64,000 nt of DNA from Ctena decussata (Eukaryota > Mollusca > Bivalvia > Lucinida > Lucinidae). The stretch covers positions 28,762,503 to 28,826,502 of the forward strand of contig OZ022511.1 in NCBI GenBank assembly GCA_963989385.1, read 5' to 3'. The number at the start of each line of letters is the position of its first letter. The first letter of the stretch is position 1. This document shows, in pieces, positions 43,501 through 49,500 of the stretch. Below the pieces are notes generated by a model. It was not told the DNA's origin and searched no databases. It worked only from the letters and a program-made list of their open reading frames with translations. The position numbers were made by a program, and so were the translations under genes.

Positions 43501-46500
43501 AATTGGCTTGCTATTGTAGTGTAGTGTAGTGTGCTATATAATCAAAGAAGGAGAGGTAAACATGGAATTATGATACACTATAGTTGGCAAAATGTGTGTA
43601 ATACTTGCTTTATACTACTTTATTGGATGTTTATTGTGTATAATTGGCTTGCTATTGTAGTGTAGTGTAGTGTGCTATATAATCAAAGAAGGAGAGGTAA
43701 ACATGGAATTTGTCTCCTGAGACATGCAGAAGCTAGACGTGTATTGCTTTTCTGGTGTCTGCATTGGGGGTGTAAAGTTGTCGTTTTTGGCTTTAAGCTC
43801 TGTTTTATGATGACGAACTGACAGGCATGACACAAGATTCTGCAGATTTCTAGTTCTGTTGGCACTGTCTGCAGAAATTATCGTGTACATTGAAGGAATT
43901 TGGAGTTATTCCGATGAAATACTGTGTCGTTACTCTACGAGTATTTGGATGAAATACTGGGTATTACCTTTAGAATATGGACAGCGTCTGTGCAAATACA
44001 ATAGACTGTTGGAAGGCAGATCCCAAAGCTTAGGTCTGATCAGGGAAACTTTGTTCACCATCCAACCAGCACTTCATCAAATGTATTTGAAGCAACAAAT
44101 GGACTTTGAAAATGGAAAAAAAAAAAAAAAAAAAAAAAAATCGCCCAAAGTGTTAGTCTTCATTGGTATTGAAGGAGTCACAGTAGCTCAGTGGGTTAAG
44201 CTCTAGCCAGCTGATCTAGCAGTCCAGTTGATTTCAGGATGTGGAAATCTTTTCAGTCGTATATGGGGCTACATTGCACACAGCCCTTCATTATCGCCCT
44301 CCCATTGTCTTGATGGTTGTAACACTGTTGAAAAGGATCAACTACCCATCCATCCATTGGTAATGATTCCAGTGTAAGGATACACTTCTAAGATAAACCT
44401 GGTTACTTTTGTTTATCCTCCCATCTGGGCTGGAACCCTTAAAGGTCAGTTGGTTTAGTGCTAACATGCTTTTGGTCCCTGCTTTGATCCCCGCTGAAGG
44501 TGGACATATTTTCAACAACCATACCTGCCTTTCATTATCAACCTCCCATTGTGCTGATACCAATGTATTACTGTTTAAAAGGATCAGATTGTAAAGTCAT
44601 CCATCTGTCTATCTCAATGTCTGGTCAGCCATCAGTGAAAAGAATTTGCTCAACCAGAAAACTATTTTTTCCTTCAAGGTAAAAGGGTACACTTTCAGGG
44701 AAGCAGTTCTGCTATTTACATTTTTGCCCTCTTTCCAGTGAGAGTCCATTCTTAAAAGAATTTGCTCATAGGAGCAAATTTTTCCTTAAATAGTAGACCC
44801 CATTTTGGAGGGTTACATCATTTAGGGAAGCAAACATAAGAGTCAAGAAAGTTGTTCCTTTAGTAAAAGAGGCAGAAAACGCCTAGACCTTCTGAGTGGG
44901 AGCTTTTGATGCATGGAAGCCAATACTAAATGAGCCACAAAACAACAAAACCTACAAAGTGGCATGTGTGCCCAGCAAAGACTCAGATCATCAGCCTGGG
45001 CATCCACCCAGTCTGATCAGTCTTCGCCATGCACTAAAAAGGTAGCTAAGGGTCTAATCTACCTCCATGCTCACAGCAAAGAGTCTGATCAAATGGGTGG
45101 ATGCCAGTGCTGATCTTAGTCTGCACTGGGTGCACATTCCACTTTGCTGGTTTTGTCGTGTCGCGGCTCCATCATCATTGTTAACATAGCAGTGTATTCA
45201 CTATCCAGTCAACATATTGTATGTGACCCAGCATGTAAAGTAGTAAGGCTTGATTTAATTAGGGCATAACAAGTAACTTTAATATTCTAGCTGAAAAACC
45301 TCATGATAGTTGGGATAGATTCTTATCATGATTCTGCAAAGAAGGGACGTTCTGTGGGCGGTGTCATAGCCTCGATGAACTCAGCACTTACAAGATACTA
45401 TAGTCGCTGCACATTCCAGACTTCAATGCAAGAACTACTTGATGGCCTGAAAGTGTGCATCAAAGGTCTTGGATGCATGACATTCTGTTAAATGTTCAAT
45501 TTTGTTTGTTTCATTGCTTTGCTTATTTGCTTCGCTTATTTGACTATTAAGCTTCGGGCTTGTTTTGCAATAAGAAATTTGCCAGATTGGGGAATATTAA
45601 TACACTTGATATATTGATGTATGGGGCCGATTGCTCAGATCTAGTTCAAGATAACCTGGAGGTTAGTCTGTGTTTTTTGAATGGCTTTAACTGTAGGGTT
45701 ATCTTTAGATCTTAGCAATCAATTTATAAAGTTTTGTTCATAGTTGAGCAAGAGTGTACATTATTGGAATAGATGTATTTACAAAAAATGTAAGTCTCGT
45801 ATTCCTCATTGGCATTTTTCTTGACAAGCATATGATTAACAGTTTGCATGCGTTTCAGTTTTGTTATTTTCTGCAAACAGCAGGTCAGACAGACGTTTAA
45901 TTGAGCTACAAGGCAACAAAACCAACAAAGTGGCATGCCAGCCCAGTAAAGACTTAGATCAGTCTGGGCATCAGCCCAGTCTGATCATAGTCTTTCAGTC
46001 TTCACGAAACCCCGTCTGACCGCCTGACATGTCTGGTAAAAATTCACTCGGTCTGGTAAAATTATTCAGAATTTTCAAGTGCATTTTAATCATTTTACCA
46101 GATTCGGTCCTGTAAACTCTGGTAGACTTTCGTGAACTCTGGTCTTTGCTGTCAGCATGAAGGTAGCTTAGATCCTTAGCTACCCTTTAAAGTGCACAGC
46201 TAAGACTCTGATTAGCTGATCTGAGTCTTCCCATAGTGCACATGCCACTTGGTTAATTTGTTGTGTCGCTGCTCATATTTTTTCCTTTTCCAATTTTACC
46301 ATATTTACTGTGGTTATTCAGACAAATACCTGAATGTACAGACAGGAGCAAACATTGTAGACCTTGATCTGCGTACAGGAGCAGTCATATCAAGATGAGG
46401 TGTGCTGTATCCTTCATTTTCTTTAAGAAAGTAAAATTTTGTTCTCTGTACCCCTAAAAGAACTAAATCAATGAAGACTGCTCCGAAGAAAAAGTTGATC

Positions 46501-49500
46501 CAGGTCTACAGTGCTCAAAGCATGTCTGTATGAATATTGAGGGTAAATATTGTATGAAACACAGTAACTCTGTGCTCTCGATAAGAAGTGGTAACGGATA
46601 TAATTTTTCATATTTCAGCCTAAAAACTAGTTGTTAGCACTTACTAGAACTGCCTCTCCGAGACTGTAGCAGTGAGCCCTTATTAGAACTGCCTCTCTGA
46701 GACTGGAGACCTTTCTCAGAGCTCTAGATAAGAGGGAGTATTCTGTGATAATTAGGGATGATTTTTGTTAATTCTCCATAAAATCATATGTTGTGACCCT
46801 TCATCTGAACCGTCTCGACCAGGCGGTTCAGATGAGGGGTCACAACATATGGTTTCAATGAGAAATAAGAAAAATTATCTCTAATTACCATCAAATACTC
46901 CCTCATATCTAGAGCTCTGTTTCTTATGTGGGGTCACAACAATGTTCTTGTTGAAATAAAATCTCAGAATTTTCTTTAAAATACCACCTTATCTGGAGCT
47001 TAGAACACTGCATCGTTATTATGCTGGTTCATGCATGCTATTGAATTTATTTTCATTCAGTTCAGTTCAGAGAATATTTCCTAACAGTTGCTGTTATTTT
47101 CTTGTTCCATTCTTTCAACAGTTGAAAAATCTCATGGTAATTGGTATAGACACTTACCATGACTCTGCCAAGAAGGGTCGTTCCGTTGCTGGTTATGTGG
47201 CCAGTATGAATAAGAATCTCACAAGGTATTACTCGAGAGTGGCCTTCCAACATAGTCAGCAGGAATTGGTTGATGGATTAGTTGTTTGCACTAAAGGTAT
47301 AATAGATGTTGTGACACTGAATAAGATGCATAGTTGTCAGTAATAAATGAATTGATCGTGCAGTGTGGATGGGAGGCTCAAATATTGTAAAAAATAATTG
47401 AACTGTCACAAAGGCTCTGATTCGTATATGATCGATATAACAGACAGCTCACAAAAATTCAAAATATTAGGTTGATTTTCTTCAGTTATATGTAATAATG
47501 GAAAAATCTGAAGTAAATCGGTCAGTGAAACACTGGTTGCCTATATATAGCTATTAAACGGTAATATCTAGTGATATATACTGCTTGACATTTAACTGGG
47601 TGGACTAGCATGATGATATTAAGGCCATTTGGACTGCATTTTGATTTAGTTTGGTTGGTAACTACTACTCTTATCAAAAGGAGAAAGAATTTGCTCTGTC
47701 TAGAGAGCAAATTCTTCATTTTGAGATAGGGCTCACCTACAAGAGAAGCAATTACTCTTTTGCTAAAGTCTGGCATTAAGGTGAATGATGACCAAATTTG
47801 GACATTTTCAATCTTTGCCCCTCAATTAAAGGAAAGACTTTGCTTGCACCATTAGGGACTAGACCCCACTTTGGAAGGGCCTAGTCATCTAAGGAATTAA
47901 ACAGGATTAACTCGAGTTGTTTCCCTATTTATAAAGGAGCCATGGAAACACTGTCCTGCTATTAAAATTAGTTGTCCTGATGCAACTCTGATTGGAGGCA
48001 GAATTCTTTTCAACAGTAAGTGGAGTTCCACTGCACTCAGCCTTTCATGGTCACCCTTCTATTGTCTTGATATGACAGGAATACATTTGAAAAGGTCGAA
48101 AAATTATAAATTGTCCATCTATCCTTTTGTAAAAAGGTGGATGGTCGAGACATATCCATTCACCTTGCAAAATGTAAACCAAACCTTGGTGGTGTATCCA
48201 GACACAAATTTTGGGTTTTCAATTCTATAGGGGCTTTGGAGAAATACCATGAAGTAAATGGCACTTTACCAGATCGGATCATCGTGTACAGAGATGGTGT
48301 TGGGGATGGCCAGTTGGCTGCTGTGTTTGAGCATGAAGTTCAGCAGATGTGCGAGGCATTCCAGAAAGCAGGAGGACAAGGCTACATGTATGTACCTTAC
48401 ACGAGCAGCCGTTTCATATGAAATTTATGAAACAAGGTTTCTGTGAGTTTCATAAATTTGATAAGAAGTGGCTACTTTTGTCTGATTCTGATTTTCACAA
48501 GACCATTAACTTCCAAAAGAAAACAGTAGTATCGTAACATCCTCGCATACATGTTTTCATAATGACTTAAATGATAAGTTATGTGTGATCATATGATTTC
48601 CTGTAACGACATTAGGCACTGTTTTGTACTAGTCCTGCAGTAAAATGGTTAGTTTTATACCAGTTAGGGAAAGAAAAACAAAGAAAGCCTGTATAAAAAC
48701 ATTACGAGTTGTTATTCTGCTAATACATGTATGTCAGCAAACACAACTAACTACAAATGGAATTTGAATTTCACTCCTGCTAGTTCCAGCTGAAGGCCCA
48801 ATATACTCATCAGCTGTCGGCTAATACGAAATTCGCATACCAGAATAGGTCTTGGAAACAAACAGGTTTGTAGCTCAAATGGTATTTTGGAGACAATAGG
48901 CTAACTTTGTGAAGCTAGTGGGGTCTTCCAAAAGAATGTCATAACATTATACACATGCATGTTTAGCGTCCATTCCCTGCCTACCAAACTGAATTTTGTC
49001 TCAGAAGGGAGGCTTTTCTCAGTGTCGGGGGTAATCTTTGCGTGCAGTTTTCGGGTTAAGCTCTACTTTGTGACAGTGCGTGGACATTCTGCAGAATTCT
49101 TGTAACTATTCATCTGCTTTTTAGGCCTCGAGTTGCAGTAGTTGTAGTAAAGAAGAGAATCAACTCCAGATTCTTTGCCAAAGTAGGGCCAAATCTCTCC
49201 AATCCACCACCGGGAACAGTAATTGACACAGATGTCACAAAGCCAGAATGGTAAGACACAGTACATAATTATGGTAATACACATTATACATAGTGGTAAT
49301 ACATAGATGTTAATCAATGAAGGTACCCAGCTTGGTAGCAGTCAAAAGTTGAGGAGGGAAAAATGGTATATAGCTCGTAAGGCCCAAAGGGTCTCTGTAA
49401 GCTTGCAGTATAGTTTTCCAGACAGTATGGCCCCCGGCCCATCGGGGCCCACTAAATAGATGGGTTGCCTTGTGGTTCTGGGGAATAGCTGCCAGTAGCT

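What the first reader, a model, noticed from the sequence alone, without database searches (positions are those of the whole stretch)
45291..47296. Mutually exclusive exons swap half of the slicer active site of a PIWI protein
Two exons of identical length (175 nt) and identical phases (0 in, 1 out) each encode the segment with catalytic Asp 645 and the Glu finger 683. They share 43 of 58 residues, yet about 25 of the shared residues use different codons, so both have been under protein-level selection since an old duplication. Differences sit beside the Asp (I-V/V-I, S/T), in the helix after it, and just before the Glu (T/H, M/Q). Such an arrangement would make two PIWI isoforms from one locus with different catalytic-pocket lining, and hence perhaps different slicing rate, metal preference or target tolerance. 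I know of no described PIWI gene regulated this way, but I cannot search.
Basis: partly seen in the sequence, partly recalled or inferred. Interest (0 to 1): 0.92.

Follow-up and report, generated by a model that had tools for sequence, protein, structure and literature searches.

The report
Swappable active-site exons in bivalve Piwi
A shellfish gene for a transposon-silencing RNA-cutting protein carries two interchangeable versions of the exon that encodes half of its cutting site, and oysters and mussels carry such a pair too, so one gene probably makes two versions of the enzyme.

Summary
The window carries one 18-exon Piwil1 gene (19415-52149, + strand). Exons 14a (45291-45465) and 14b (47122-47296) are both 175 nt, phase 0 in and 1 out, 43 of 58 residues identical, 25 of those 43 with different codons. 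Using both or neither gives an early stop. Only this exon is duplicated. The pair is not private: Saccostrea echinata isoforms X1 and X2 differ at 18 of 871 positions, all inside this exon, and a Mytilus gene model holds both copies in tandem. Both copies keep D645, H648, S656 and E683 and score 341 bits against Pfam Piwi, so neither looks decayed and both should slice. Differences cluster around the Glu-finger loop and the helix behind it; the loop that tunes seed strength in AGO is identical. A single old duplication fits best, but two (one in the window's lineage, one in oysters/mussels) are not rejected (p 0.054). Not shown: splicing in this species, tissue specificity, any biochemical difference. 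The 14a donor site is weak. Ten searches of open-licence papers listed no report of the pair.

The parts
19415..52149 (+). Piwil1 gene, coding part, 18 exons (14 counted once): 19415-19528, 20178-20415, 21567-21781, 23773-23897, 25393-25473, 26578-26772, 27454-27565, 28320-28443, 31585-31702, 33642-33759, 36337-36524, 38090-38241, 39232-39356, 14a or 14b, 48231-48387, 49125-49250, 50058-50205, 52033-52149; 875 residues
   Evidence: Exons located by tblastn with a recalled human PIWIL1, splice sites set by hand, frame checked; PAZ 114 bits and Piwi 341 bits in Pfam. Exons 1 and 2 rest on frame, splice sites and similarity to bivalve N-termini, not on RNA.
39232..39356 (+). exon 13, shared upstream neighbour, ends in phase 0
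45291..45465 (+). exon 14a, residues 636-693, with D645 and Glu finger E683; donor GTCTTG is the weakest of the 18 donors scored
   Evidence: groups with Mya, Saccostrea X1, Ostrea X2, Dreissena and Mytilus first copy
47122..47296 (+). exon 14b, same length and phases, with its own Asp and Glu finger; donor GTATAA
   Evidence: groups with Mactra antiquata (97/80)
45466..47121 (+). intron between the two copies, 1656 nt
48231..48387 (+). exon 15, shared downstream neighbour, enters in phase 1, carries catalytic D715
52033..52149 (+). exon 18 with catalytic His850 and stop
44927..45175 (.). foldback repeat upstream of exon 14a; may pair with the copy at 45898-46275 and loop out 14a (speculative)
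45898..46275 (.). second copy of the foldback repeat (with an insert) downstream of exon 14a

Best explanation
A pair of mutually exclusive, tandemly duplicated exons in the single Piwil1 gene of a bivalve, of a kind also present in oysters and mussels. Splicing exon 13 to 14a or to 14b and on to 15 gives two full-length PIWI proteins (open frames here; annotated isoforms in Saccostrea). Each copy supplies three strands of the RNase-H-like core, catalytic Asp645, the Glu-finger loop with E683 and the start of the next helix. Transcripts with both or neither exon stop early (shown) and would be lost to nonsense-mediated decay (inferred), which leaves one-exon mRNAs. Both isoforms keep the known slicer residues and should cleave RNA (inferred). 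They most likely differ in how the Glu finger plugs in, or in what docks on that face, through the residues just before E683 and the helix behind it (inferred, untested). 14a is the slowly evolving form; 14b is the derived form.
For: Equal length and phases, frame break with both or neither, saturated synonymous sites. Saccostrea X1 and X2: 18 differences of 871, positions 640-689, all inside the exon (residues 632-689); of 12,246 pairs of 157 rows this pair shows the largest excess of flank over exon-14 identity. Mytilus gene model with both copies in the order 14a, 14b. P0011, a 14b-type protein of 873 residues on a contig of 3,293 bases, must come from spliced RNA (inference). Exon-14 tree: six 14a rows and eight 14b rows (labels given by eye beforehand) split by one branch, 98/94, in all 200 bootstrap trees counted. 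D645, H648, S656, E683 in both window copies and in all 19 other bivalve or bivalve-like rows checked. Equal Pfam scores, 341 bits. Same fold for both oyster isoforms.
Against: No RNA from this species. The 14a donor is weak (-1.05 against 3.71 to 10.6 for the other 17). Window 14b matches oyster 14a (44 of 58) better than oyster 14b (40 of 58), and holding the window's two copies together is not rejected (p 0.131 and 0.147). Scallop rows show one form of mixed character. The isoforms X1/X2 are database annotations whose read support I could not see. No experiment shows a difference in activity.
Confidence: 0.8

Rival explanations
1. Both exons are spliced but the two proteins are equivalent; the pair serves dosage control, because wrong choices (both or neither) give a transcript that is destroyed.
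For: Both and neither give early stops; known slicer residues and the seed-tuning loop are identical in the two copies.
Against: Six positions never overlap between the six 14a and the seven 14b rows compared, and 14a is far more constrained than 14b (window against Mya 53 of 58; window against Mactra 41 of 58), which suggests distinct roles.
Confidence: 0.12
2. In this species exon 14a is on its way out: its donor is too weak and only 14b is used.
For: 14a has the weakest donor of the 18 scored, GTCTTG; foldback repeats bracket it.
Against: 14a is open, 53 of 58 identical to Mya, more conserved than the rest of the protein (530 of 698), and makes a protein with the same Pfam score as 14b. Weak donors are also usual in regulated exons (general knowledge).
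Confidence: 0.07
3. The pairs arose separately in the window's lineage and in the oyster/mussel lineage, so the arrangement is convergent.
For: AU test p 0.054 for two duplications, not rejected; window 14b is nearer oyster 14a than oyster 14b by identity.
Against: One duplication is the best tree (12.2 log units better); three duplications are rejected, p 0.001, and an oyster-own plus window-own history too, p 0.00026. Only 58 columns and one model (LG+G4).
Confidence: 0.2
4. Assembly artefact or very recent duplicate.
For: None found.
Against: Synonymous sites are saturated and the same kind of pair exists in other species.
Confidence: 0.01

Closest known systems
Annotated Piwil1 isoforms X1 and X2 of Saccostrea echinata (P0003, P0008)
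   Same: Two full-length proteins that differ only in this exon, of 14a and 14b type
   Different: Database entries only; I found no description of them. Whether Ostrea edulis X2 and Crassostrea virginica X1 have the opposite form as their other isoform was not seen.
Mutually exclusive exons in general (for example Dscam or PKM; recalled, no call)
   Same: Tandem homologous exons of one length and phase, one used per mRNA
   Different: Here the exchanged piece is half of the catalytic tetrad of a PIWI slicer; no such case was listed in my searches
Feline and bovine PIWIL1 splice variants (PMC10253428, passages read)
   Same: Alternative splicing of PIWIL1 that touches the PIWI domain
   Different: There an exon is added or parts are missing and the catalytic triad is lost; here two homologous exons exchange and the tetrad is kept
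Drosophila Piwi, DVDK tetrad (PMC7015924, passages read)
   Same: Slicer competence tuned at the Glu finger and its helper residues
   Different: A fixed loss of slicing in one gene, not a splice choice; both bivalve copies keep the Glu finger and helpers
PIWI-loop swap between human AGO2 and Arabidopsis AGO10 (PMC10240194, abstract, one section and passages read)
   Same: Small changes in the same stretch of the PIWI domain alter targeting and turnover
   Different: Engineered swap of a loop that is identical (DSAKKGR) in 14a and 14b

Membership tests
PIWI-clade Argonaute (Piwil1) | PAZ and Piwi domains | tested here: met
   Both window isoforms: PAZ 114 bits, Piwi 341 bits
PIWI-clade Argonaute (Piwil1) | Nearest relatives are Piwil1 proteins | tested here: met
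   Best full-length matches are entries named piwi-like 1 / PIWL1-like of bivalves; no gene tree against Piwil2 was built
Slicer-competent PIWI | DEDH tetrad and Glu-finger helpers His and Ser | tested here: met
   D645, E683, D715, H850, H648, S656 in both isoforms, matched through the numbering in PMC7015924
Slicer-competent PIWI | Measured RNA cleavage | not testable with these tools
   No assay
Mutually exclusive exon pair | Adjacent homologous exons of equal length and phase | tested here: met
Mutually exclusive exon pair | Joint inclusion or joint skipping breaks the frame | tested here: met
   Stop 38 nt into 14b, or in exon 15
Mutually exclusive exon pair | Transcripts with either exon, hardly ever both | tested here: inconclusive
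   Annotated X1 and X2 in Saccostrea, each with one copy; 14b-type protein on a cDNA-sized contig. The Mytilus model joins both copies, which I take for a prediction error. No RNA of this species.
Mutually exclusive exon pair | A mechanism of exclusion | tested here: inconclusive
   1656-nt intron and GT-AG sites speak against steric or minor-spliceosome exclusion; RNA pairing possible; decay of frame-broken mRNA inferred

The most novel reading that the evidence does not exclude
Since early in bivalve history one Piwil1 locus has given two intact slicers by exchanging the Asp/Glu-finger half of the active site, so that splicing rather than gene duplication sets the cleavage behaviour of the piRNA machinery (Glu-finger plugging, product release or partner docking) by tissue or stage: in effect a hidden third PIWI in animals thought to have two.
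Probability: 0.4. Interest if true: 0.88.

Novelty: new variant of a known kind. Interest (0 to 1): 0.78.

Why it matters
PIWI diversity is usually explained by separate genes, and a typical mollusc is said to have two, Piwil1 and Piwil2 (PMC6128900, passage read). A conserved splice choice inside the active site would be a hidden extra PIWI, missed by gene counts and by qPCR that does not tell the two exons apart. It offers a natural, evolution-tested swap of 15 (window) or 18 (Saccostrea) residues around the Glu finger in an otherwise identical protein, a clean way to ask what limits the slow slicing of PIWI proteins (PMC9385479, passages read), and it gives a new way to test the tissue- and sex-specific ping-pong reported in molluscs (PMC6128900, abstract).

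Tried and rejected
Assembly artefact or recent duplicate: rejected by saturated synonymous sites and by other species. One isoform as a slicer-dead switch: not supported, the known slicer residues are in both copies. The seed-tuning loop as the difference: rejected, DSAKKGR in both. More copies of the exon: none in the window and none found in the genome with the 14a peptide. A duplicated exon in the other PIWI-type locus: one copy in the 9-kb stretch fetched, L009; the rest of that locus was not read. Steric or minor-spliceosome exclusion: 1656-nt intron and GT-AG sites argue against it. A gastropod pair: in the comparison of all pairs of 157 rows the largest gastropod contrast, P0056/P0122, is between two limpet species with flanks of 80%, so no gastropod pair was seen; the database keeps cluster representatives only. 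Literature: ten searches, all in open-licence PMC papers, listed nothing that describes the pair; of the hits I read passages of eight papers, and for one of these (PMC10240194) also the abstract and one section. An earlier check used the wrong histidine (H807); one search repeated it with His850.
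Full report
What is there. The window (28762503-28826502 of contig C14 in a 1.66-Gb assembly) holds one Piwil1 gene on the + strand. I placed 18 coding exons, 19415-52149, with GT-AG sites and a continuous frame. The protein has 875 residues, an RG-rich start, PAZ (114 bits) and Piwi (341 bits) domains. Its nearest full-length relative among the rows compared is Piwil1 of the clam Mya arenaria, 656 of 866 residues identical.

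The duplicated exon. Exons 14a (45291-45465) and 14b (47122-47296) have the same length, 175 nt, and the same phases. They share 43 of 58 residues and 110 of 175 bases; 25 of the 43 shared residues use different codons. By a Nei-Gojobori count pS is 0.85, past the point where it can be corrected, and pN 0.24. A transcript with both exons stops 38 nt into 14b; one with neither stops 24 nt into exon 15. None of the other 17 exons has a second copy in the window. In the genome the 14a peptide finds 14a, 14b, one exon on C3 and one hit at E 0.92; the 14b search did not complete. The Piwi-domain model gives 13 exon matches on three loci: this one, C3 and C12. From the alignments I take C3 for Piwil2 and C12 for an AGO gene (recalled resemblance, not tested).

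Other bivalves have such a pair. Three protein searches (679, 86 and 31 hits, the first listing only its best 120) gave 160 proteins. The 155 plus the two window isoforms are the 157 rows compared; the five new ones were not added. Of all 12,246 pairs of the 157 rows this pair shows the largest excess of flank identity over exon-14 identity; the next three pair the same X1 with 14b-type oyster proteins, the fifth is a pair of two limpet species with flanks of 80%, and the window's own pair is sixth. Mytilus galloprovincialis P0001, a gene model fused to a Timeless domain, holds both copies one after the other in the order 14a, 14b; I take the joining for a prediction error. Among single-form entries Mya (P0002), Dreissena and Ostrea edulis X2 show the 14a type; Mactra, Saccostrea cucullata, Crassostrea virginica X1 and the unnamed P0009 and P0011 the 14b type (labels given by eye). 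P0011 has an 873-residue frame on a contig of 3,293 bases, so it should come from spliced RNA (inference). Database proteins are clustered at 90% identity and gene predictors often pick one of two exclusive exons, so a missing second form means little.

Age. On 58 columns a 47-row tree, rows chosen by me out of the 157, separates the six 14a rows from the eight 14b rows by one branch, 98/94, in all 200 bootstrap trees counted. Four scallop-like rows, with one form of mixed character, fall inside the 14a side; gastropod, Solemya and Potamilus rows fall with 14b, several on long branches that the program warns about. In a 17-row set one old duplication is the best tree. Three separate duplications are rejected (p 0.001), as are an oyster-own plus window-own history (p 0.00026), a Saccostrea-only pair (p 1e-5) and, barely, a Mytilus-only pair (p 0.0485). 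Two duplications, one in the window's lineage and one in the oyster/mussel lineage, just escape rejection (p 0.054), and holding the window's two copies together is not rejected (p 0.131; p 0.147 in the larger set). Against a single origin also stands that window 14b matches oyster 14a (44 of 58) better than oyster 14b (40 of 58). So an old duplication shared at least by oysters and mussels is well supported; one event for all these bivalves is likely, not proven.

Selection. 14a is the constrained form: window against Mya 53 of 58, the rest of the protein 530 of 698. 14b moves at about the pace of the protein: window against Mactra 41 of 58, rest 529 of 698. Both window isoforms score 341.0 bits against the Pfam Piwi model. 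Neither copy looks like a dead duplicate.

What the swap does to the protein. Models of the two Saccostrea isoforms (mean pLDDT 83.8 and 83.7) have nearly the same secondary structure; the first, the only one compared with the PDB, is closest to MIWI, sponge Piwi and MILI. The exon covers three core strands, the Glu-finger loop and the first residues of the following helix. The residues known to matter for slicing within it are D645, the helpers H648 and S656, and the Glu finger E683, matched through the numbering for human Ago2, Siwi and Drosophila Piwi in PMC7015924 (passages read); D715 and H850, outside the exon, complete the tetrad. All are the same in both window isoforms and in 18 of 19 other bivalve or bivalve-like rows; the nineteenth, P0027, ends before the histidine but has the rest. 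The second copy in Mytilus keeps D, H, S and E too. The loop that tunes seed strength in AGO (HsAGO2 602-608, PMC10240194) corresponds to DSAKKGR here and is identical in the two copies. The 15 differences are at 641, 642, 646, 658, 660, 661, 666, 667, 675, 676, 679, 681, 685, 689 and 692. Six positions never overlap between six 14a and seven 14b rows: D+22, D+30, D+36, D+40, D+44 and D+47; four of them lie next to the Glu finger (D+38) or in the helix behind it. Hence the proposal: two working slicers that differ in how the Glu finger moves or in what docks on that face. PIWI proteins are slow slicers helped by GTSF1 (PMC9385479, passages read), so either could matter; nothing here tests it.

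How the choice may be made. The intron between the copies is 1,656 nt, so crowding does not exclude joint use, and the sites are GT-AG. Loss of frame-broken transcripts would leave one-exon mRNAs (inference). Exon 14a has the weakest donor of the 18 scored (GTCTTG, -1.05; the others 3.71 to 10.6), which suggests that 14b is the default here and 14a needs help (inference). Two copies of a foldback repeat bracket 14a; in a computed RNA fold they pair around it, 33.9 kcal/mol better than with pairs limited to 600 nt, 167 pairs enclosing the exon. A control stretch around 14b gains 18.4 kcal/mol over its 400-nt limit, with 109 enclosing pairs. The repeat is common in this window and there is no comparison with another species, so I give this little weight.

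Known or new. Ten literature searches (listed in Tried and rejected) turned up alternative PIWIL1 forms in cat and cow (PMC10253428) and catalogues of mollusc and bivalve PIWI genes (PMC6128900, PMC4793324); in the passages I read none mentions such a pair. A spawning study of Saccostrea echinata reports Piwi 1-like as raised in pre-spawn ovary, without isoforms in the passages seen (PMC12564202). Mutually exclusive exons are a known kind; a PIWI or Argonaute gene that swaps half of its active site this way was not among the papers listed. The isoforms themselves are already in public annotation for Saccostrea.

Noticed in passing
44927-45175, 45898-46275, 22805-22975, 26251-26490, 32235-32956, 51644-51878, 54827-55065: A foldback (palindromic) repeat of about 245 bases, many copies at 71-86% identity in and just after the Piwil1 gene; two copies bracket exon 14a and can pair in RNA.
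   Followed up: partly
40630-41602: Tandem array, period 168, 5.9 copies, in intron 13 upstream of exon 14a.
   Followed up: no
46717-46919: Large hairpin, two 99-nt arms 85% complementary with 5 nt between, in the intron between 14a and 14b.
   Followed up: no
43427-43710: Two copies of a 141-nt unit, 98% matching in TRF, so a recent duplication in intron 13.
   Followed up: no
protein P0012 (Crassostrea virginica Piwil1 X1): Four extra residues, KGAL, just before the 14b-type segment, perhaps an alternative acceptor.
   Followed up: no
protein P0027 (Saccostrea echinata, contig of length 69717260): A 742-residue protein on a contig of another length, identical to isoform X2 except its last residue: a partial second locus or an assembly duplicate.
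   Followed up: no
gastropod rows P0018, P0056, P0066, P0070, P0104, P0111, P0112, P0122 in the exon-14 tree: Single-form gastropod exon-14 segments group nearer to bivalve 14b than to 14a: either the duplication is older than bivalves or long branches attract each other.
   Followed up: partly
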